Assembly: GCF_020832325.1 (NCBI RefSeq)
Contig: NZ_JAFIEU010000031.1
Location: 1-64,000, forward strand
Length of the DNA stretch: 64,000 bases
DNA from: Lunatimonas sp.
GTDB lineage: Bacteria; Bacteroidota; Bacteroidia; Cytophagales; Cyclobacteriaceae
Reading direction: 5' to 3'
Below the pieces are notes generated by a model. The model worked only from the letters and a program-made list of their open reading frames with translations. It was not told the origin of the DNA and did not search any database. Below, one piece after another: positions 5,485-33,856 of the stretch. Numbering within the stretch: the stretch's first letter is position 1; each line of letters starts with the position of its first letter. The position numbers and the translations under genes are program-made.

Positions 5485-8265
5485 ATGTCGCACGACCCTT
5501 TCCATATCAAACGAACATTAGAATCATCCACCGGCACATTGACCTATTGGAGTCTTGCAGAGTTGCAGAAGCAGGGGTATGCAGTCGAAAAATTACCTTT
5601 TTCGATCCGAATCCTGTTAGAGAATGCGTGTAGAAATTTTGACGATTTTGGGATAACAACGGAAAATCTGGAAACCTTGCTGCATTGGACGCCAAAACCA
5701 TCGGATAAGGACATTCCCTTCAAGCCGGCACGGGTGCTGATGCAGGATTTTACGGGCGTGCCTGCGGTGGTAGACATCGCCTCGCTTCGGGCAGAGGCCG
5801 TGCGCAAGGGAAAGGATCCCAATCAAATCAACCCGCTGATTCCTGTAGATTTGGTGGTGGATCATTCGGTACAGGTCGATTTTTTCGGGACCAATTATGC
5901 TTACAAGAAAAATGTAGATGTAGAATACGAACGTAACGGCGAGCGCTACGAGTTTTTGAAATGGGCGCAGAAATCCTTTGATAACTTTTCCGTGGTGCCC
6001 CCGGGCATGGGGATCTGTCATCAGGTAAACTTGGAGTACCTGGCCCAGGGTGTCATCGCCCTGGACGGAATGGTATTCCCGGATACCCTTGTGGGAACAG
6101 ATTCACACACGCCGATGGTGAATGGGATCGGCGTGGTGGGCTGGGGTGTGGGCGGCATTGAGGCTGAGGCAGCTATCTTGGGTCAGCCTATTTACTTCAT
6201 CATGCCGGAGGTAGTTGGACTGAGGTTGTCTGGTCAACTTCCGTTGGGTACCACCGCGACGGATATGGTGCTGACAATCACCAAGCTGCTCCGCGACCAT
6301 GGGGTCGTTGGTAAATTTGTGGAGGTTTTTGGCCCTGGATTGGATAGTCTATCTGTGCCAGACCGGGCCACCATCTCCAATATGTCCCCCGAGTTTGGCT
6401 GTACCGTGACCTATTTTCCGATCGACGATCGCACACTGGACTACATGGAGAAAACCAACCGACCTTCCAATCAGGTTAAGCTGGTAGAGTCTTATGCAAA
6501 GGCGAACCTCCTTTGGCGTGAAAACGAAGACGAGATCACCTACTCAAGTGTCGTAGAATTGGATCTTTCTACTGTGGAACCAACGGTCTCCGGGCCAAAG
6601 AGGCCTCAGGACAAGATCCTGCTTAGAAACTTCAAAAAGAAATTTGGGGAGCTGCTGCACGAAGTGCACGGGCGTGCGTACATACCGATCGATCAACGGG
6701 ACGAAAGCCGCTGGTATGCAGAAGGTGGAGGAGGGCAGCCCATGAGTTCTGGAGAAGGGGCCGGCTCCGAGGAAATCGAGATTGAAACCAAGATTAAAGA
6801 CGGTCTGAAAACGGTGGTGGTGAAGCATCAAAACGAAAAGTTTGCGCTGCACGACGGGTCAGTGGTGATAGCCGCCATTACTTCCTGTACGAACACCTCT
6901 AATCCGAGTGTGATGGTAGGTGCTGGGTTGATGGCTAAAAAAGCAAGGCAGCGGGGGCTCGATGTAAAGCCCTGGGTAAAGACCTCATTGGCACCGGGTT
7001 CTAAAGTGGTGACAGACTACCTGGAAAATGCCGGTCTGCTGGATGATCTGGAGGCGCTGCGCTTTCATGTGGTGGGGTATGGTTGTACATCCTGTATTGG
7101 TAATTCCGGACCGCTGCCCAAGCACATTGCCCAAGCAGTGGAGGAAAATGACCTCGTCGTCGCGTCGGTGCTTTCCGGCAACAGGAATTTTGAAGCTCGG
7201 GTGCACCCGCAGGTAAAGATGAACTACCTGATGTCACCCATGCTGGTGGTTGCCTATGCGCTTGCTGGCCGGGTAGACGTAGATTTAAATGAGGAGCCCC
7301 TCGGTTACGATCCCAACTTGGAACCGGTATATCTCAAGGATATTTGGCCCACCCAGGAAGAGATTATGGGCGTAATTAACTCGGTATTGTCTCCAATGGA
7401 CTTTGAGAAAAATTACGGGGAGATTTTTGCGGGAAACGAGCAGTGGCAGGCGTTGACTGCACCCGCGGATGAGGTGTATCAGTGGTCCGAAGAGTCCACG
7501 TATATCAAGGAAGCCCCCTTTTTTCAGGGCATCACCGAAGAGGTACTGGAGCCTAAGGATATTTTAGATGCACAGGTTTTGTTGAAGGTAGGTGACTCTA
7601 TCACCACAGATCATATTTCTCCGGCTGGATCATTTAAGGCTGATTCAGCGGCAGGAAGGTACCTGACAGAACGTGGAGTTCCTGTAGACCAATTTAATTC
7701 ATATGGTTCCCGTCGGGGCAATGACGAGGTGATGGTCCGGGGTACCTTTGCCAACGTGCGCATTAAGAACCAACTTGCCCAGCGGGAAGGTGGCTACACG
7801 ATTCATCTTCCAAGTGGGGAGGAAATGTCGGTTTTTGATGCGTCTTTGAAGTATCAAAAAGACCACACGCCTCTTCTTGTATTGGCGGGGAAGGAGTACG
7901 GCAGTGGAAGCTCCCGCGATTGGGCGGCCAAGGGAACCAGTTTGTTGGGGATAAAGGCGGTGTTGGCAGAAAGCTATGAGCGCATACACCGTAGTAATCT
8001 GGTAGGTATGGGCGTGTTGCCATTGCAGTATGCGGCTGGGCAAAATGCAGATTCCTTGGGTCTTACGGGTAAAGAGGTGTACTCCATAGAGGGCATTTCT
8101 GACGGATTGACCCCGCTTAAAACGTTGAAGGTGTCTGCTACGAGGAGTGACGGTTCGAAGGTAGCCTTCGAGGCCATCGCTAGGCTGGATTCAGCTATAG
8201 AGATTGCCTATTACAAGAATGGAGGGATACTCCATTACGTGTTGAGACAGTTCTTGGCGAGGTGA
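5485..8265 (+). CDS. acnA: Aconitate hydratase AcnA
   Basis: A full-length 926-residue aconitase of the AcnA/IRP1 type, catalysing citrate to isocitrate conversion in the TCA cycle. The three 4Fe-4S ligands are visible as Cys468 (SCTNTSNPSV) and Cys534/Cys537 (GCTSCIGNSG). The swivel-domain motifs GDSITTDHISPAG and GSGSSRDWAAKG are present. It stands alone between a terminator upstream and the convergent tmRNA gene downstream. Its iron-sulfur cluster would be a target of nitrosative damage, which Ric (encoded at 33 kb) is expected to repair; that link is general knowledge, not shown here. Confidence 0.97.
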   Translation: MSHDPFHIKRTLESSTGTLTYWSLAELQKQGYAVEKLPFSIRILLENACRNFDDFGITTENLETLLHWTPKPSDKDIPFKPARVLMQDFTGVPAVVDIASLRAEAVRKGKDPNQINPLIPVDLVVDHSVQVDFFGTNYAYKKNVDVEYERNGERYEFLKWAQKSFDNFSVVPPGMGICHQVNLEYLAQGVIALDGMVFPDTLVGTDSHTPMVNGIGVVGWGVGGIEAEAAILGQPIYFIMPEVVGLRLSGQLPLGTTATDMVLTITKLLRDHGVVGKFVEVFGPGLDSLSVPDRATISNMSPEFGCTVTYFPIDDRTLDYMEKTNRPSNQVKLVESYAKANLLWRENEDEITYSSVVELDLSTVEPTVSGPKRPQDKILLRNFKKKFGELLHEVHGRAYIPIDQRDESRWYAEGGGGQPMSSGEGAGSEEIEIETKIKDGLKTVVVKHQNEKFALHDGSVVIAAITSCTNTSNPSVMVGAGLMAKKARQRGLDVKPWVKTSLAPGSKVVTDYLENAGLLDDLEALRFHVVGYGCTSCIGNSGPLPKHIAQAVEENDLVVASVLSGNRNFEARVHPQVKMNYLMSPMLVVAYALAGRVDVDLNEEPLGYDPNLEPVYLKDIWPTQEEIMGVINSVLSPMDFEKNYGEIFAGNEQWQALTAPADEVYQWSEESTYIKEAPFFQGITEEVLEPKDILDAQVLLKVGDSITTDHISPAGSFKADSAAGRYLTERGVPVDQFNSYGSRRGNDEVMVRGTFANVRIKNQLAQREGGYTIHLPSGEEMSVFDASLKYQKDHTPLLVLAGKEYGSGSSRDWAAKGTSLLGIKAVLAESYERIHRSNLVGMGVLPLQYAAGQNADSLGLTGKEVYSIEGISDGLTPLKTLKVSATRSDGSKVAFEAIARLDSAIEIAYYKNGGILHYVLRQFLAR

Positions 8266-26676: not shown

Positions 26677-28209
26677 ATGAATCTTGCAGCCATTGACATC
26701 GGTACCAATTCCATTCACATGATCATTGTGAAAGTTACCTCTAAGCAGACCTTTGAGGTGCTGGTGCAGGAGAAGGAAATGGTTAAATTGGGAGTGGGAG
26801 TGTTTGCAAACAAGATGCTCAGCGAGGAAGCGTTTCAACGTGGCGTGGAAACCATCAAACGCTACGTGCAGCTAGCCGATGAGTATGGGGTAGAGAACAT
26901 CATTACAGCCGCCACTTCTGCCACTAGAGAGGCTAAAAATGGCCGGGATTTTTTGGATCGCCTCATACAGGAAGTGGGACTTTCTCCTCAGTTGATATCG
27001 GGCAAGGAAGAGTCCCGGTTGATTTTTCTCGCCGTGCGAAAGGCAATTGATTTGGGAAAGGAAAATGCACTCGTGATTGATATCGGTGGAGGCAGCACGG
27101 AGGCCGTGGTGGGCAATAAGGAAGAGGTGCTGTTTAAGAGCTCCATGAAATTGGGAGTACTGCGACTTTTGGACCGAGTGGGTTCACAGGGCCCTATGTC
27201 CAAGTCGGAGCGGAAGGACTTACAAACTCATATCAAGGATTCGGCCCAAAAAATCTTAGCCGAAGCCAGATCGGTAGGCTTTTCGAAGGTCATCGGTACC
27301 TCCGGCAGCATTCGGTCCTTAGGAGAGGCTGCTATGCTTCTAAACGGAAAGGAGATCATCCAGTCGGTCAACGCAGAGGTGGTCCGTTTGAGTGACCTGG
27401 AGGACGTTACCGGCCGTTTGTTGGATCTGGAGGCGGGGAAGCGCAGTGAAGTGCCAGGAATCAGTGATAGCCGGGCGGATGCCATTCACTTAGGAGGGTT
27501 GTTGTTGGTGGAGTTGCTTCACCTAGCGGGGGTAGACGAACTTACCTTATCAGATGCCTCGCTGCGGGACGGGCTTATAATAGACTACATTGAAAAGAAT
27601 GGACAAAAGCTTCAAGATTCGGTTACGGGAAAGAATCTCCGGGAGCGCAGCAGCTTGCTATTGGCTAAGCGATACGAAACCGATGTGGACCAAAAACGGC
27701 ACGTTGCCAGATTAGCGCTACAGCTATTCGATCAGCTGAAGGACTTTCATGGCATGGATGAATCGGCGAGAGATCTGCTCTACCATGCCAGTTTGATTTT
27801 TGACATCGGAGCTTTTGTGAACTTTAAAGATTACCACAAGCATTCCAAATACCTCATAGTACATGGAGGCCTACGTGGATTTAACAATTCAGAAATCTAT
27901 ATCCTAGCCCAGCTAGCCAGATATCACCGCAAGGCTGGTCCCAAAAAGAAGCATAAATCTTTCCGAAATATGATCAAAGTGGATAAACGGACCGTCAAAG
28001 GACTAGCGGGGATTCTGCGTATTGCCGTTGCCCTGGACAAAACCAAAAATCAGTGGGTGGAAAATGTTTACTGTCTTCCACAAAGAGATAGGCTTAGCAT
28101 CCGGCTGTTTGGAGAGGGCGGTATGGAATTGGAGCTTTGGGAGGCCCAGCGTTTTTCCAATGTACTGGAGCAGTTTTTGCGCCTTCCCATTCAGTTTGAA
28201 CTTGGATGA
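26677..28209 (+). CDS. Ppx/GppA-family exopolyphosphatase / pppGpp phosphatase
   Basis: A 510-residue protein with the actin-like ATPase fold of the family: IDIGTNSIHMIIV at the start, TSATREAKNG, the phosphate-binding loop DIGGGSTE, and GTSGSIRSLGEA. A C-terminal HD-like helical domain runs from about residue 315. Such enzymes hydrolyse polyphosphate or pppGpp. A diverged second copy of its last 22 codons lies about 1.1 kb downstream beyond the transposase, which suggests rearrangement at this gene end. The two activities cannot be told apart from sequence. Confidence 0.9.
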   Translation: MNLAAIDIGTNSIHMIIVKVTSKQTFEVLVQEKEMVKLGVGVFANKMLSEEAFQRGVETIKRYVQLADEYGVENIITAATSATREAKNGRDFLDRLIQEVGLSPQLISGKEESRLIFLAVRKAIDLGKENALVIDIGGGSTEAVVGNKEEVLFKSSMKLGVLRLLDRVGSQGPMSKSERKDLQTHIKDSAQKILAEARSVGFSKVIGTSGSIRSLGEAAMLLNGKEIIQSVNAEVVRLSDLEDVTGRLLDLEAGKRSEVPGISDSRADAIHLGGLLLVELLHLAGVDELTLSDASLRDGLIIDYIEKNGQKLQDSVTGKNLRERSSLLLAKRYETDVDQKRHVARLALQLFDQLKDFHGMDESARDLLYHASLIFDIGAFVNFKDYHKHSKYLIVHGGLRGFNNSEIYILAQLARYHRKAGPKKKHKSFRNMIKVDKRTVKGLAGILRIAVALDKTKNQWVENVYCLPQRDRLSIRLFGEGGMELELWEAQRFSNVLEQFLRLPIQFELG

Positions 28210-28218
28210 CGTATGTTT

Positions 28219-28310
28219 TTAGCGGTTCATGTACTCGGCATAGAGACCTAACTGCAAGCCCATCATCGGAAGGTCAGAGATTTGCTTGGAATTCTTCGCC
28301 TCAGCGAGAC
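28219..28310 (-). pseudogene. Possible C-terminal remnant of an unknown minus-strand gene
   Basis: Read on the minus strand, this segment gives an open, natural-looking C-terminal peptide ending DLPMMGLQLGLYAEYMNR and TAA (28219-28221). Its upstream side is cut off by the 56-bp ric copy at 28311. It has no start codon. I do not recognise the parent gene. The plus-strand frame across the same bases looks less natural. This is a weak call. Confidence 0.25.
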
Positions 28311-28366
28311 TTGGCAAAAAGAAAAGTTGGCGGTATGGTGGCGGATAATTTCCGCACAGCAAAGGT
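28311..28366 (+). pseudogene. 56-bp copy of the 5' coding end of ric
   Basis: These 56 bases match 33140-33195 (codons 4-21 of ric plus two bases) at 54 positions. The two changes are TTA to TTG (silent) and ATT to ATG (Ile to Met). Similarity stops sharply on both sides, and the first REP-like hairpin begins 7 bp later. There is no start codon of its own, so it is a fragment and not a working gene. Confidence 0.85.
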
Positions 28367-28372
28367 TAAGGG

Positions 28373-28506
28373 GGAATTGGAAATTCCTTTTATCTGCCCT
28401 CAAAATTGCAAATTTCGAGGAGCGTGCGAAGCGTGCTGTTTGGGATTTGCAATCCCGAACCTTAGATAAACAGGATTTGCAATCCTATTATCTGCCCTCG
28501 AGGAGC
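28373..28506 (+). repeat. Left REP-like hairpin block flanking the transposase
   Basis: Four short palindromes with 3-nt loops: GGAATT/AATTCC (28373-28387), CCTCAAAATT/AATTTCGAGG (28398-28420, one mismatch), GGGATT/AATCCC (28442-28456) and AGGATT/AATCCT (28472-28486). The spacer TATCTGCCCTC...GAGGAGC occurs twice, the second time (28489-28506) without the inner palindrome. The same units recur in the same orientation to the right of the transposase. They are the likely target or mobile repeats of the RAYT-like enzyme. Confidence 0.85.
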
Positions 28507-28511
28507 GGGGG

Positions 28512-29039
28512 TTATAACGGACTTAACTCAATCTTACTCTTCCTTAAACCATAAAACTCACCGCAACTGCTGTTGATATACTCCTCTTCTTTTTCAACTA
28601 TTCCTGCTCTCACTGGATTCATGTGGATATAGCGGATTTTGGATGCTAAAAAATCTTTCGAATAAATTTCCTCGCCATGGTAGCCATGCTCCCAAAACCA
28701 AATATTCTCCTCTTTCTTGAGCAGCCACAATAGCCACCGCTTTCTACTTTCCCTAGGGTTGTTCTCAATAGCCTTATAAATTGCTTTAGAAGTGAATTTT
28801 CTCAAATCTCTGATGATATCACTTAAGGGTATTTTATCACTGCCTAGTATTAAGTGGCAATGGTTGGTCATAATTACCCAACAGTAGATTTTTAACCCTT
28901 TATTTTCTTGACAATATTGGATGCTATTGATCAATATGTCAACATATTCCTCGCGGGTAAAAACATCCACCCACTGATGAACGGTAAATGTGACATAATG
29001 CATGGCAAACTGATCTCTGATAGTATATGAAAAAGCCAT
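28512..29039 (-). mobile_element. REP-associated (RAYT-like) HUH transposase
   Basis: About 175 residues, of the Y1/IS200-like transposase superfamily. The HUH metal-binding motif is H60-C61-H62 in MTNHCHLIL. The family segments DIIRDLRKFTSKAI and IRYIHMNPVRAGIV are present, and FWEHGYHGEEI occupies the usual WQ..NHP.E position. I cannot place the catalytic tyrosine with certainty. ATG at 29039 is preferred over the in-frame ATG at 29069, which lies inside a TTGACA/TGTCAA palindrome (29059-29074). Hairpin blocks on both sides match the arrangement of RAYT genes with REP sequences. The gene looks intact. Confidence 0.85.
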
Positions 29040-29131
29040 ATTCGAAAATTTTAAAGTATTGACAATCATGTCAATTTACGTAATAGAAAAGAAAAAATAA
29101 AACAATTATAGCGGTTGGATTTTCGGCATGC

Positions 29132-29255
29132 GCTGTTTGGGATTTGCAATCCCGAACCTCAGATAAACAGGATTTGCAATCCTATTATCTAAGACAGGGC
29201 AAGGAGGGGAATTGGAAATTCCTTTTATCTGCCCTCGAAATTGCAAATTTCGAGG
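29132..29255 (+). repeat. Right REP-like hairpin block flanking the transposase
   Basis: The same four palindromes as on the left and in the same orientation, but in the order GGGATT/AATCCC (29139-29153), AGGATT/AATCCT (29169-29183), GGAATT/AATTCC (29208-29222), then CCTCGAAATT/AATTTCGAGG (29233-29255, a perfect 10-bp stem with loop GCA). Left order is A-B and right order is B-A, so this is not a simple direct duplication. Confidence 0.85.
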
Positions 29256-29329
29256 AGCTTGTAGCACAGCGTTTTGCCGATGTGCTGGAGCAGTTTCTCA
29301 CGATTCCGGTGCACATTACGAGGGGATAA
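29256..29329 (+). pseudogene. Diverged duplicate of the 3' end of the ppx/gppA gene
   Basis: The frame reads AQRFADVLEQFLTIPVHITRG and stops at 29327-29329, against AQRFSNVLEQFLRLPIQFELG at the end of the intact gene. By hand count, 29 of 33 bases match over the first 11 codons and 44 of 66 over 22 codons. It abuts the last hairpin directly. The divergence argues for an older or foreign allele tail and against a recent local duplication. Confidence 0.7.
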
Positions 29330-29336
29330 TTTGCTC

Positions 29337-32300
29337 CTATTGGCTAGTAGCCAAATGCGGTTTCTTCGAAATTGTGAAGTAAAAGGTAGTTCCTTTTCCT
29401 TCTTCCGACTCAAGCCACACTTTTCCTCCTAACAGTTCGACCGTCTTTTTGACGATGGCAAGACCAATACCGTTACCGGAGTATTCGTCTTTGTTATGAA
29501 GGCGCTGAAACAGGATAAATATTTTTTCGAAATATTCGGATGAGATACCAATGCCATTATCGGTCACACTGAAAAACCATTCCGAGTCTAACTCTTCCCC
29601 GGTGATTCGGATAATCGGCTGGATTCCTGCGCGTCTGTATTTCACCGCATTTCCAATTAGGTTTTGGAAGATCTGCAAAACGGGCGTTTCATATGAGTAG
29701 ATTTTCGGCATTGGGTCCAATTTTATGCTTCCACCTAATTCTTGTAATTTCTTATTAACCGGCTTTACCAAGTCGCCAATCAGTTGGTTTAGGTCTATCT
29801 CTTCGAGATTTCCTAGCTCCCGGCCTACTCTTGAAAACTCCAATAGGTCAATAATAATATGCTTCATCCTACTGGCACCATCAATGGCAAAATGAATGTA
29901 TTGGTTTGCTTTGTCATCCAGCTTGTCACTGTATCGCTTTTTTAGCAGGCCCATAAATCCGGTGATCATCCGAAGGGGTTCCTGTAGGTCATGAGAAGCA
30001 ATGAACGCAAATTGCTCTAGTTCTTGATTGGATAGCTCCAATTTGTGGACGTTATTTTTCAGTTCATTGTTTATGCGTTGTAGCTCTGTTTCAGCCAGCT
30101 TTTTTTTGTGGATATCCTGAATGCTTCCATAGATTCGCGTGCATTTTCCATCCTCAAAAACTGGGATTCCGATGGATTGTACCCATTTTTCCCGTCCATT
30201 CTTTGTCACTGCCAACGATTCTATGGTATACCTTTTGTTTTGTTCAATTGCCGTTTGAAATGCACGCTGAACTTCCTCTAGGCTTTCAGAACGATAAAAC
30301 GTCATCACATTCTCCAAATTTGGTTTGAAGTCATAGGGTACCTCAAAGATGTCGCAGGTGGTAGGTGTCCAGTGTATGGTATTTTGGATGAAATTGATCT
30401 CCCATCCCCCCACTTTGGACAGATTCGAGGCCGAATCAAGTAGTTCTTTTATCTTTCTAATTTCGGAAATATCCTTTACGGTGCCTACCACTCGAATCGC
30501 TTCTCCTTGCTCACCCCGGATTATCACCCCGGAATCCTCTACCCATCGGTATTCTCCACTGCCATCGCGAAGACGATAGCTATAGTTCCACGCGGTAGAG
30601 TCGCTCTCATGGATGATTTTTCCGAATACAGCGAGGGTTTCTTCTTTGTCCTGTCCATGCATCAGTCGTTGGTACCAGGTCGTAGTGAGGGGTTCGTCAT
30701 CCGCAATTGAATGGCCAAATATGCGGGAGAAGTTTTTACCTAGGAAAAGTTCTCCGGTTGACGGAGTTACTTCGTAGATAACCTCCGAACTGGCATCCGC
30801 AAGTACCTCGTACCGTTCGTTGATTTCTTTGATCTGCTTTTCCATTTGACTCCGGTTGGTGATGTCAATGCCCGAGCATTGAATTTCTATCGGTTCACTG
30901 TCGGAATCAAGCAGGCAAACAAAATCCCATAGGGTTGTAATGACTTTCCCCGGTATTTTAGTCGGCTTATCCATCTCAACCTGAAATGCACGGCCTGGCT
31001 CCTTTAAGCATTTCTGCACTACTTCGACAACGTTGGCGTGGTGGTAATCACAGATTGATGTTAAACACGTTTCACCCAAAAGCCCTTCGGTATGCATCCA
31101 TCCAAAGGCATCTATAAATTTCTTGTTGGCAAAGGTATACCTACCCTCAAGATCGGTTTTGATCACATAATTGCTATGGGATTCAAAAAATAGGCGGTAT
31201 CTGGCTTCACTCTGCTCCAGCTTTAACTGAAATTCCTTTTGTTTTGTGACATCACGGGAATTAGTCAGAATACCCTTAAAGGCTTCATCGTCAATGAAAT
31301 TTGTCGAGATAGTCTCCAACCATCGCCAGTTTCCGGAAAAATCTAAAAACCGATAAGGACTTAGTTCTACCCGCTTTGTCTTTTTAATTTCTAAAAAACC
31401 TTCAAAAACTTGTGGCAGATCGTCTGGGTGAACCAATTCAAAGGCATTTTTTCCTAACATCGTATTCGGATCATACCCCATGATATTCCATGCAGTATTC
31501 CCAATAAATGTGAAGTTACCCGAAAGGTCAAGGACAGTAATGATGTCGCCGCCTTCTTCTACAATGGCTCTGAATTTCCGTTCACTGGCGGCCATGGCCT
31601 GTTCTGCCTGTCTTGTAGCCGTAATGTCTAATCCAATGCCGATGATGCAGTTTTTTCCGTCATACGTGAACTGAGACCCCTTAAATAAAAAAATGAACTG
31701 CTTTCCAGTTTTACTAATAAGCGTTGCTTCTACGGTTGCCTCACCTTCTGAAAAAGCAGTTTGTATAACATTTCTGACTTTTTCCTTTTCTTCGTCTCTA
31801 AAAAAATCCAGTGGATACATGCTTTTGTATTCTTCTGGTGAATATTCCGAATAGTGGGTCATGGCATTATTCACCAATAGGTGGTTGCCATTTTCGTCAA
31901 ACAAAAAAAATGGAATAGGGAGTTTATCGATCACTTCCTGCAGTTGACTCGCTTTTTCGTTTAGCTCCTGTTCTAACTTTTCCCGGTGGGAAAGCTCGAT
32001 TAATTGAGCAGCTTGGTCTGCCAATAAACTGAGGGCACATTCTTGGTCTTTTTTTAGTACGCGGGGTTGATAGTCCCAGATGGACAATGCACCGAGCAGT
32101 TCGCCGGTTTTGGACAGGAGCGGGTATCCTGCGTAGAAGTGAAGATCTAAGTCGCCAGCGCGCGGGCCAAGTTCCTGGTATCGTAAGTCCGTTGCTACTT
32201 CACTTACAATGACCGGACCCTGATCAAACGGAACAGAACCAGCGCAAATCGGACACGAAATTGGTGCTGGCTGATCCATTCCAGTGGAAAAAAACAAATC

Positions 32301-32414
32301 ACCACCCTGCAGTACCGATAAAAGGGCTATGGGCACCTCACCGATATAGGCAGCTAATTTGGCATTTTTTTGAAAGTCAACAGGTGAATCTTGGGGCGAT
32401 TTATCTGGGTGCAT
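29337..32414 (-). CDS. GAF/multi-PAS sensor histidine kinase
   Basis: A 1025-residue soluble kinase with no membrane segments. An N-terminal GAF-like domain (about residues 20-150) contains several cysteines (CPICAG). It is followed by about five PAS/PAC modules (about 155-785) and a HisKA domain with phospho-His in FIASHDLQEPLRM. The ATPase domain has N-box NLIGNAVKYR, DNGIGIS and GNGIGLAIVKKTVE. No receiver domain and no adjacent regulator gene are seen. It sits between the transposase region and the NO-related rrf2-ric genes, divergent from them. Whether it senses redox, NO or another cue is unknown. Confidence 0.93.
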   Translation of the reverse strand: MHPDKSPQDSPVDFQKNAKLAAYIGEVPIALLSVLQGGDLFFSTGMDQPAPISCPICAGSVPFDQGPVIVSEVATDLRYQELGPRAGDLDLHFYAGYPLLSKTGELLGALSIWDYQPRVLKKDQECALSLLADQAAQLIELSHREKLEQELNEKASQLQEVIDKLPIPFFLFDENGNHLLVNNAMTHYSEYSPEEYKSMYPLDFFRDEEKEKVRNVIQTAFSEGEATVEATLISKTGKQFIFLFKGSQFTYDGKNCIIGIGLDITATRQAEQAMAASERKFRAIVEEGGDIITVLDLSGNFTFIGNTAWNIMGYDPNTMLGKNAFELVHPDDLPQVFEGFLEIKKTKRVELSPYRFLDFSGNWRWLETISTNFIDDEAFKGILTNSRDVTKQKEFQLKLEQSEARYRLFFESHSNYVIKTDLEGRYTFANKKFIDAFGWMHTEGLLGETCLTSICDYHHANVVEVVQKCLKEPGRAFQVEMDKPTKIPGKVITTLWDFVCLLDSDSEPIEIQCSGIDITNRSQMEKQIKEINERYEVLADASSEVIYEVTPSTGELFLGKNFSRIFGHSIADDEPLTTTWYQRLMHGQDKEETLAVFGKIIHESDSTAWNYSYRLRDGSGEYRWVEDSGVIIRGEQGEAIRVVGTVKDISEIRKIKELLDSASNLSKVGGWEINFIQNTIHWTPTTCDIFEVPYDFKPNLENVMTFYRSESLEEVQRAFQTAIEQNKRYTIESLAVTKNGREKWVQSIGIPVFEDGKCTRIYGSIQDIHKKKLAETELQRINNELKNNVHKLELSNQELEQFAFIASHDLQEPLRMITGFMGLLKKRYSDKLDDKANQYIHFAIDGASRMKHIIIDLLEFSRVGRELGNLEEIDLNQLIGDLVKPVNKKLQELGGSIKLDPMPKIYSYETPVLQIFQNLIGNAVKYRRAGIQPIIRITGEELDSEWFFSVTDNGIGISSEYFEKIFILFQRLHNKDEYSGNGIGLAIVKKTVELLGGKVWLESEEGKGTTFYFTISKKPHLATSQ

Positions 32415-32602
32415 ACGGGGGATTGTATTCGATCAGTCTAGTACTGATTGCTACAGCAATAGGCTATCGAATACCCTAGTAAATATCACCATAAATTAAA
32501 TCTAGAGCAACTTGTAAGAAGGCTAAGCGAAAAAATAATGGCGTTTTATTTTTGAAAAATCGAGAATAAGGAATTTTAGTAGAAAATAAATAAAGGATAA
32601 AA

Positions 32603-32632
32603 TTGTCGTTAAATAAATAAAAGATATATTTG
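32603..32632 (+). promoter_or_regulatory. Promoter of the rrf2-ric operon
   Basis: TTG at 32603-32605, a 19-bp spacer, then TATATTTG at 32625-32632. This matches the Bacteroidota sigma-A consensus TTG-N19/21-TAnnTTTG and ends 20 bp before the rrf2 ATG. An A/T-rich, partly symmetric context (GGATAAAATTGTC against GATATATTTGTCC) could hold an Rrf2 operator, but that is a guess. Confidence 0.7.
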
Positions 32633-32652
32633 TCCTGTAATGGTTGTTTCCC

Positions 32653-33084
32653 ATGTTTTCAAAAGCGTGTAAATATGCCATAAATGCCATGATCTACGTT
32701 GCCACCCTGCAATCCGAAAAAAAGCGTGCAGGATTGAAAGATATTGCGTTGGCCATAAGCTCTCCAGAAGCTTTTACGGGCAAGATTTTGCATGCACTGG
32801 TCAAGAGTGAGCTTCTGGTGTCCACAAAGGGGCCAAATGGGGGATTTGCGCTGAAGAATAGCCCCGATGAAATTGTTCTCGCTGAAATCGTCGTCAGTGT
32901 AGACGGGGAAATGCGCCTTAAGGCCTGTGCAATCGGTATAGAAAAGTGCTCCAAGCAATATCCGTGTCCGGTGCATTTTAAGTTTAAGGCTGTGCGCGAA
33001 CACCTGTTTGGTATGTTGCTGACCACCAATTTGAAGGAAGTCGCAGAGCGGGTAAATACCGGCTTGAGCTTTCTAAAGCAGTAA
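32653..33084 (+). CDS. Rrf2-family (NsrR-like) iron-sulfur transcriptional regulator
   Basis: A 143-residue winged-helix protein of the Rrf2 family (MFSKACKYAINAMIYVA; recognition-helix region about 28-60; wing KGPNGGFAL). Three cysteines, C92-x6-C99-x5-C105, match the cluster-binding arrangement of NsrR/IscR-type members. ATG at 32653 is chosen over TTG at 32644. It lies 46 bp before ric, so sensing NO or iron-sulfur status and controlling ric is the simplest reading. Confidence 0.9.
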   Translation: MFSKACKYAINAMIYVATLQSEKKRAGLKDIALAISSPEAFTGKILHALVKSELLVSTKGPNGGFALKNSPDEIVLAEIVVSVDGEMRLKACAIGIEKCSKQYPCPVHFKFKAVREHLFGMLLTTNLKEVAERVNTGLSFLKQ

Positions 33085-33130
33085 AAGGAATTACCAAAAT
33101 AAAAGATAAAAACATCCCTAATAAACAACT

Positions 33131-33856
33131 ATGGAAGCATTAGCAAAAAGAAAAGTTGGCGGTATTGTGGCGGATAATTTCCGCACAGCAAAGGTATTTA
33201 CAGCATATGGCATAGACTTTTGCTGCAAAGGTGGTATTACCTTAGAGGCAGCATGTGAAAAAAACGACGTGGCCCTTGATTCACTGATTCGTAAGCTAAC
33301 GGAGGTAGCGGCATTGCCTGAGGAGCTGGTGTATACCAGCCAGCCAATGAATGAGTTGATCGACCACATTGTATCCACACACCATGCTTATGTGGAGAAC
33401 ACCATCCCACCATTAAGGGCCTATCTGCAAAAGTTGGCGCAGGTACATGGTGATCGACATCCGGAGCTACACGAGATCAAGGACTTGTTTCTCGAGGCGG
33501 CGGACGGCTTGACGGTTCACATGAAAAAGGAGGAATTGATTTTGTTTCCTTATATTAAAGCCATGCAATCTGCTATTGACAACGGATTTACCCTTTCGCA
33601 GCCGCATTTTGGGCATATCGATAACCCCATAAGCATGATGGAAGATGAACACGATGCAGAGGGGGAGCGTTTTCGCCGAATTTCCGAACTTAGCGACAGC
33701 TACACCACTCCGTCGGACGGGTGTCAGACTTACCGTGTCGCTTATGCCATGCTGAAAGAGTTTGAGGAGGATTTGCATACGCATATCCATTTGGAAAACA
33801 ATATCTTGTTTCCGAAAGCAAAAGACCAATTCGCACGGTTGATTCAGCCTGCTTAG
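33131..33856 (+). CDS. ric: Iron-sulfur cluster repair di-iron protein (Ric/ScdA/YtfE family)
   Basis: A 241-residue protein with an N-terminal ScdA_N (DUF542) domain carrying the C31-C32 pair in YGIDFCCKGG. A hemerythrin-like four-helix bundle (about 75-235) follows, with His and Glu ligands in HHAYVENTIPPL, HMKKEELILFPYI, EDEHDAEGE and HIHLENNILFP. Family members release iron to rebuild clusters damaged by NO or peroxide. It is cotranscribed with the Rrf2 regulator. A 56-bp copy of codons 4-21 exists at 28311-28366. Confidence 0.95.
   Translation: MEALAKRKVGGIVADNFRTAKVFTAYGIDFCCKGGITLEAACEKNDVALDSLIRKLTEVAALPEELVYTSQPMNELIDHIVSTHHAYVENTIPPLRAYLQKLAQVHGDRHPELHEIKDLFLEAADGLTVHMKKEELILFPYIKAMQSAIDNGFTLSQPHFGHIDNPISMMEDEHDAEGERFRRISELSDSYTTPSDGCQTYRVAYAMLKEFEEDLHTHIHLENNILFPKAKDQFARLIQPA

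What the first reader, a model, noticed from the sequence alone, without database searches (positions are those of the whole stretch)
28311..28366. 56-bp near-identical copy of the ric start region beside the transposase
Seen directly: 54 of 56 bases equal ric codons 4-21, 4.8 kb away, with sharp edges. Two bold readings are possible. First, it marks a recent transposition or template-switch event by the RAYT. Second, if transcription from the minus-strand transposase gene runs on, the RNA would be antisense to the ric mRNA just after its start codon, a possible trans-acting control of NO repair. On the plus strand, read-through from the phosphatase gene would give a sense decoy.
Basis: partly seen in the sequence, partly recalled or inferred. 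Interest (0 to 1): 0.7.

Follow-up and report, generated by a model that had tools for sequence, protein, structure and literature searches.

The report
Gene-fragment scar beside a REP transposase
A 56-base stray copy of the start of a nitric-oxide-damage repair gene, glued to the end of a small transposase element, is most likely a leftover of a local DNA rearrangement rather than a regulator, and similar leftovers sit at the same kind of element in several related bacteria.

Summary
The copy is real: 28311-28366 equals 33140-33195 at 54 of 56 bases. It is ric codons 4-21 plus two bases, direct, ending 6 bases before a REP/RAYT element. The spot is a patchwork: intact ppx, about 100 bp of orphan DNA, the ric piece, the element, then a 66-bp remnant of a second ppx tail that abuts a histidine kinase gene, as in a congener. 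Neither congener held has the copy. No Bacteroidota-type promoter core or Rfam match was found, so antisense or decoy control is unsupported, though not excluded.

The RAYT link holds up. Of 99 RAYT-like centres (window excluded), 8 carry a short direct copy of a gene lying across the element, against 2 of 1035 control centres (p about 1e-7). By eye, 5 of the 8 loci have real gene pieces, from five genera, placed and ending at the element as in the window. Best reading: a duplication joint at a REP/RAYT element, later eroded to a scar. REP hot spots and a duplication-IS-duplication event are documented, so this looks like a natural variant of a known kind.

The parts
26677..28209 (+). intact ppx/gppA-type phosphatase gene, tail IQFELG*
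   Evidence: Pfam PF02541, PF21447; 80.8% DNA identity over 1592 bp to G035, another genus
28210..28310 (.). orphan DNA with no relative found
   Evidence: 30-aa minus-strand reading matched 1 of 98 genomes, its own, at E up to 0.1; no other match to this part in the own genome
28311..28366 (+). the finding: copy of ric codons 4-21 plus 2 nt
   Evidence: 54 of 56 identical to 33140-33195
28371..28426 (+). REP-like palindromic module A (left)
   Evidence: 96% to 29206-29261; related copies elsewhere in the genome
28435..28493 (+). REP-like module B (left)
   Evidence: 98% to 29132-29190
28512..29069 (-). RAYT, REP-associated tyrosine transposase, with NHCH and YIHMNP motifs
   Evidence: NF047646 101.1 bits, cut-off 80; PF01797; motifs; 93% aa identity to G063, 90.6% DNA
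29132..29190 (+). REP-like module B (right)
29206..29261 (+). REP-like module A (right)
29264..29329 (+). 66-bp remnant of a second ppx 3' end, tail VHITRG*
   Evidence: 44 of 66 bases equal the intact gene's end; joins the kinase gene as the broken ppx of congener G001 does
29337..32414 (-). PAS-domain histidine kinase gene
   Evidence: PF08447, PF00512, PF02518
32644..33084 (+). Rrf2-family regulator upstream of ric
   Evidence: PF02082, TIGR00738
33131..33856 (+). ric, iron-sulfur cluster repair di-iron protein; source gene of the copy
   Evidence: TIGR03652 237.1 bits, cut-off 204.7
33140..33195 (+). source stretch of the copy

Best explanation
The 56-bp copy is a scar, not a working part. 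The most likely course: a local tandem duplication of the block that runs from beside the element to the ric start was joined at the REP/RAYT element, giving [block]-element-[block]. One copy of the block was then deleted except for 56 bp of ric that remain flush with the element. Shown: the copy, its flush edge, the direct orientation, the source on the far side of the element, and the same geometry at five other RAYT loci in five genera. Inferred: the tandem-duplication intermediate and the later erosion. Not known: whether RAYT cleavage of REP DNA started it or the palindromes alone made the hot spot.
For: (1) Recurrence: 8 of 99 RAYT centres against 2 of 1035 control centres (ORFs of 400-900 bp not next to a RAYT) hold a short direct copy of a gene lying on the other side (Fisher p 1.0e-7, window excluded). 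By gaps: 11 of 193 against 10 of 1364 (p 9e-6), and 6 of 140 against 4 of 613 (p 0.004) for gaps of 150-900 bp (window excluded). (2) By eye 5 of those 8 loci have pieces of real genes (GreA/GreB C-terminal domain, Met-zincin, DEAD-box helicase, putative glucoamylase, ROK kinase). With the window, all six are direct, on the opposite side from the source, and end at the element: 6 nt away (window); 17-19 nt (L180), 1-2 nt (L240) and a 4-nt overlap (L272) by alignment with related elements elsewhere; 9 nt by hairpin (L194); directly at REP-like sequence by eye (L251). (3) L180 and L194 come from single-contig genomes (G134, G029), which speaks against assembly error there. (4) The three recent repeats at the spot have like divergence: 2/56, 1/59, 2/56. 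(5) No Ku match in this genome (0 of 1), against NHEJ filler. (6) Precedent: 22 of 90 sequenced novel junctions at REP sequences in E. coli (PMC3161906, passages); a duplication with a new IS copy between its two copies, at a REP cluster, in P. fluorescens (PMC11708052, sections 8 and 9).
Against: No intermediate with the whole block doubled was seen. In PMC11708052 all eight tested losses removed the IS together with the duplication, so an IS-retaining scar is not the common outcome. L240's repeated block also contains RAYT leader sequence, and against two other relatives (L216, L233) its copy lies inside the element between leader and gene, so that case is more complex. The two ppx tails differ at 22 of 66 bases, so the window has had at least one further replacement. 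RAYT gaps are longer (median 260 against 135.5) and richer in repeats. Three of the eight automatic hits (L247, L250, L265) are REP or RAYT fragments or lie in a doubtful ORF by eye, and the L251 hit printed is REP-like too (its gene piece is a separate hit). Curation was not blinded; with curated cases against uncurated controls p is only 0.03. REP-like gaps without an adjacent RAYT gave 1 of 50, too few to separate RAYT from REP.
Confidence: 0.5

Rival explanations
1. Templated filler in one step: a fork or break at the edge of the REP palindromes was repaired by a template switch that copied 56 bp of ric and returned (MMBIR-like). Also a scar, but with no tandem-duplication stage.
For: Sharp edges, short length and nearby source; template switching at microhomology, with REP sequences as a junction hot spot, is proposed for E. 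coli (PMC3161906 passages); no Ku match.
Against: A free template switch should take either side and either orientation; all six curated cases are direct and across the element. If side and orientation were even chances this has probability about (1/4)^6.
Confidence: 0.28
2. RAYT capture: the RAYT moved the element together with a stretch of flanking host DNA, after an insertion at the end of the copied piece or by using a false left end.
For: In the window, L180 and L272 the piece begins about where the alignment to a related element at another place stops; RAYTs are relatives of IS200/IS605 transposases (PMC2817692 passages).
Against: No shared target motif is visible at the six junctions by eye; in the window the junction falls in the spacer of a REP array, not clearly at a defined element end (by eye); the source genes read as open frames.
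Confidence: 0.12
3. Regulatory copy: read-through RNA across 28311-28366 acts as antisense (from the RAYT strand) or sense decoy (from ppx) for ric mRNA.
For: An antisense RNA would pair strongly with ric codons 4-21 (computed duplex -96.7 kcal/mol); no terminator-like site was found between RAYT and copy on the minus strand, and a weak sigma-70-like match (9 of 12) lies inside the copy on the plus strand.
Against: Not found in either congener; copy drifted at a conserved codon; no TAnnTTTG core in 28100-29400 on either strand; no Rfam match; pieces of unrelated genes at other RAYT loci make a ric-specific role unneeded.
Confidence: 0.04
4. Remnant of a former second ric gene, reduced on both sides.
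For: A congener has two full ric genes and another a ric remnant.
Against: The copy is 96% identical in DNA to this genome's own ric, while the ric genes of congener G002 are 76% and 65% identical to it in protein; the second gene would have to be very recent and lose all but 56 bp ending beside the REP.
Confidence: 0.06

Closest known systems
REP-associated amplification and rearrangement junctions in E. coli (PMC3161906, passages; Shyamala 1990, seen only as a reference entry)
   Same: Novel joints form at REP palindromes
   Different: Those are fresh amplifications and rearrangements found after selection; here only eroded short pieces remain, next to a RAYT gene, in Cyclobacteriaceae
Dup-IS-Dup in P. 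fluorescens SBW25 (PMC11708052, sections 8 and 9)
   Same: A mobile element stands between two direct copies of one block, at a REP cluster
   Different: IS481 rather than RAYT; 60-kb block, whole and unstable; here the near copy is only 25-299 bp
RAYT / TnpA_REP, Bacteroidetes subclass 2.6 (PMC6006769, passages)
   Same: Y1 transposase of about 180 aa, NHxH and YIHxNP-like motifs, flanked by unusual palindromes with copies elsewhere in the genome
   Different: No gene-piece copies at its ends appear in the passages seen; subclass placement is inferred from motifs only

Membership tests
RAYT (REP-associated tyrosine transposase) | Y1 HUH transposase of the RAYT equivalog | tested here: met
   NF047646 101.1 bits, cut-off 80; NHCH at 69 and YIH at 147 of the 185-aa ORF
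RAYT (REP-associated tyrosine transposase) | gene flanked by REPs in inverted orientation (PMC2817692, abstract passage) | tested here: inconclusive
   Flanked on both sides by palindromic modules, in order A-B and B-A, but the paired modules are direct copies
RAYT (REP-associated tyrosine transposase) | REPs abundant elsewhere in the genome | tested here: inconclusive
   The exact core GGATTTGCAATCC occurs 4 times, all at this locus; related modules at 3 further places. Variant cores were not counted
REP/IS-associated duplication junction (Dup-element-Dup) | direct copies on both sides of the element | tested here: met
   56 bp only: 28311-28366 and 33140-33195, element between
REP/IS-associated duplication junction (Dup-element-Dup) | full-length duplicated block on both sides | tested here: not met
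   Only 56 bp of the supposed block of about 3.9 kb is present on the left; so it is not filed as a member, only read as an eroded remnant of such an event
trans-acting antisense or decoy RNA | copy kept in relatives, with a transcription signal | tested here: not met
   Not found in G001 and G002; no TAnnTTTG core; one weak sigma-70-like match inside the copy
trans-acting antisense or decoy RNA | a transcript that changes target expression | not testable with these tools
   needs RNA-seq and deletion

The most novel reading that the evidence does not exclude
RAYT/REP elements in Bacteroidota actively generate duplications: RAYT cleavage at its REP ends, perhaps while the element moves, triggers local tandem duplications whose eroded ends leave short gene pieces flush with the element. 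A supposedly quiet transposase would then be a steady source of gene fragments and rearrangements.
Probability: 0.18. Interest if true: 0.6.

Novelty: new variant of a known kind. Interest (0 to 1): 0.36.

Why it matters
As a single case it is a harmless scar. As a recurrent pattern it gives a readable fossil record of duplications at REP/RAYT loci, turns 'are RAYT elements rearrangement hot spots in nature?' into a countable question, and warns against reading such short copies as regulators or genes.

Tried and rejected
Chance match: rejected (E 3.5e-19). Copy as part of the element proper: rejected, because the closest RAYT relative (L178, G063) has no ric piece beside it. Orphan 28210-28310 as a gene end: its 30-aa minus-strand reading has no Pfam match and no match in 97 other genomes. 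NHEJ filler: no Ku match (of 14 control genomes the search rang in Bacillus subtilis only). Known RNA: no Rfam match at E up to 1 in 28000-33400.

Stages of the gene-piece test. A crude first version gave 8 of 42 RAYT loci (window included) against 9 of 186 control positions, with many REP-like hits; two of the nine control hits were the window's own pair. The gap version on the first 40 RAYT-set loci plus the ric loci gave RAYT gaps 5 of 81 (window included; 3 of 79 without its two gaps) against 8 of 1009. As that rested partly on the window, 60 more loci were fetched before the final tests. Curated counts 5 of 193 against 2 of 1364 give p 4.7e-4; 5 curated against 10 uncurated controls gives p 0.03. 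REP-like gaps not next to a RAYT: 1 of 50; that hit (L258) is in a RAYT locus and by eye looks like a gene end plus REP present on both sides of the RAYT. Placing the other five cases by an empty site was not achieved: alignments to related elements cover the element, not the flanks. Some fetched loci overlap (L049 and L178 share 5.7 kb), so a few control gaps may count twice.

Full report
Observation. The copy is exactly where stated. 28311-28366 and 33140-33195 agree at 54 of 56 bases, in direct orientation. ric (TIGR03652) starts at 33131, so the piece is codons 4-21 plus two bases. In the copy, codon 12 reads Met; all 16 ric starts printed have Ile there, so at least that change arose in the copy. 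In the window self-comparison the four strongest repeat pairs of 64 kb all have a copy in 28144-29296.

Anatomy of the spot. From left to right: an intact ppx (26677-28209), about 100 bp of orphan DNA, the ric piece, palindromic modules A and B, a minus-strand RAYT (NF047646), modules B and A again, and then 66 bp that are a second ppx 3' end joined to a PAS histidine kinase gene (Pfam). In congener G001 a broken ppx tail (stops inside) abuts the same kinase gene with no element between, so the kinase-side remnant is taken as the resident tail. The intact ppx has a tail like that of another genus, G035 (IQFE.G against VxITxG, translated by eye), and is 80.8% identical to it in DNA over 1592 bp. 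I infer that the resident ppx was lost and a related one took its place. The genome shares a genus with Lunatimonas lonarensis: the G002 contig that carries ric has the length of the named record NZ_AQHR01000114.1. The species itself is not named by any search.

Relatives. G002 has two full ric genes, 76% and 65% identical in protein, and no extra ric piece. G001 keeps only a 5' remnant of this ric, beside an Rrf2-like gene (the Rrf2 reading there is by eye). All three genomes also have a distant paralog (26-27%). Neither congener showed the copy, in a search that did find it in this genome. A DNA search of 59 genomes, own included, with the surrounding 1441 bp showed one other match to the ric stretch, in G022, not examined further; only up to six candidates per genome were scored.

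Expression. No TAnnTTTG promoter core lies in 28100-29400 on either strand, while one with a TTG box 17-23 bases upstream lies before rrf2-ric at 32603-32632 (the motif is recalled). Sigma-70-like sites number 5 against 2.6 (sd 1.4) expected, one of them (9 of 12) inside the copy on the plus strand; terminator-like sites 3 against 1.6 (sd 1.5), none between RAYT and copy on the minus strand. No Rfam family matches. An antisense RNA could pair well if it existed, so regulation is unsupported rather than impossible.

Is the RAYT neighbour a coincidence? I fetched 100 loci of 8.6 to 18 kb, 99 of them at places listed and one a REP locus. One search found RAYT matches in 103 of 148 family genomes, and not all listed matches were fetched. 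With 79 ric-centred loci as further background, I searched each locus against itself for short copies (22 nt or more, 85% or more, E up to 0.001, at most two partners, no long hairpin) that lie in an intergenic gap and match inside another ORF. Four of the 100 loci gave no RAYT-adjacent gap (L217, L226, L256, L257). With the window excluded, gaps beside a RAYT-like ORF gave 11 of 193 and other gaps 10 of 1364 (p 9e-6). Restricted to gaps of 150-900 bp it is 6 of 140 against 4 of 613 (p 0.004). Asking for the window's geometry, a direct copy with its source across the central gene, gave 8 of 99 RAYT centres and 2 of 1035 control centres, the controls being ORFs of 400-900 bp not next to a RAYT (p 1.0e-7).

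Curation. Of those eight loci, five have pieces of real genes by eye and Pfam: L180 (299 bp, 99%, GreA/GreB-type C-terminus), L194 (26 bp, 100%, Met-zincin), L240 (298 bp, 96%, DEAD-box helicase end), L251 (79-bp match, putative glucoamylase interior, 6.6 kb away; the hit printed for L251 is a different, REP-like one on its right) and L272 (25 bp, 96%, ROK kinase end). L247, L250 and L265 are REP or RAYT fragments or lie in a doubtful ORF. Of the ten control hits I judge two to be real gene pieces (L038, L270). The five good cases come from five genera, and L180 and L194 from single-contig genomes. In all six, window included, the copy is direct, lies across the element from its source and ends at the element. 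L240 is more complex: its repeated block also includes RAYT leader sequence. Curation was by one reader and not blinded.

Mechanism. The layout is left flank - piece - element - block - source. A tandem duplication with the element at its joint gives block-element-block; losing most of the first block leaves the piece. This explains the direct orientation and the opposite side, which a free template switch does not. PMC11708052 (sections 8 and 9) describes a fresh block-IS-block event at a REP cluster, although there the eight losses tested removed the IS as well. PMC3161906 (passages) reports 22 of 90 junctions at REP sequences and suggests that secondary structure, rather than homology, makes the hot spot. 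The three recent repeats at the window spot have like divergence (2/56, 1/59, 2/56), which fits one event but does not prove it. Whether the RAYT protein is needed is open: REP-like gaps not next to a RAYT gave 1 of 50.

Novelty. REP hot spots and an element-separated duplication are in print. Gene-piece scars at RAYT ends in Cyclobacteriaceae did not appear in the listings of five paper searches or in the passages seen of five papers; the library holds open-licence papers only. I file this as a new variant of a known kind with modest interest. The regulatory reading should be dropped unless RNA data say otherwise.

Noticed in passing
26677-28209 and 29264-29329: Two ppx 3' ends of different ancestry: the intact gene resembles that of another genus (G035), the 66-bp remnant resembles the broken ppx of congener G001; suggests replacement of ppx by a relative's gene.
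   Followed up: partly
L122:1501-1602 (G001): In congener G001 this ric is reduced to a short 5' remnant beside an Rrf2-like regulator gene; only a distant paralog (27%) remains there.
   Followed up: partly
28512-29069; L178:7798-8325: RAYT gene 90.6% identical in DNA to one in Belliella pelovolcani (L178 is identical over 5.7 kb to the named locus L049), far above the rrf2-ric stretch (66%), which points to recent transfer; there too it lies about 12 kb from ric.
   Followed up: partly
28210-28310: About 100 bp with no detectable relative between ppx and the ric piece.
   Followed up: yes
28311-28339: A weak sigma-70-like match (9 of 12) starts at the first base of the copy on the plus strand; probably chance.
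   Followed up: no
L210:7504-8605: A RAYT locus with several near-identical repeats around it that include part of the RAYT's own end.
   Followed up: no
L193:1396-1451 and 6759-6814: A 56-bp inverted copy at 98% identity 5.4 kb apart in a RAYT locus, more than 1 kb from the RAYT gene; unexplained.
   Followed up: no
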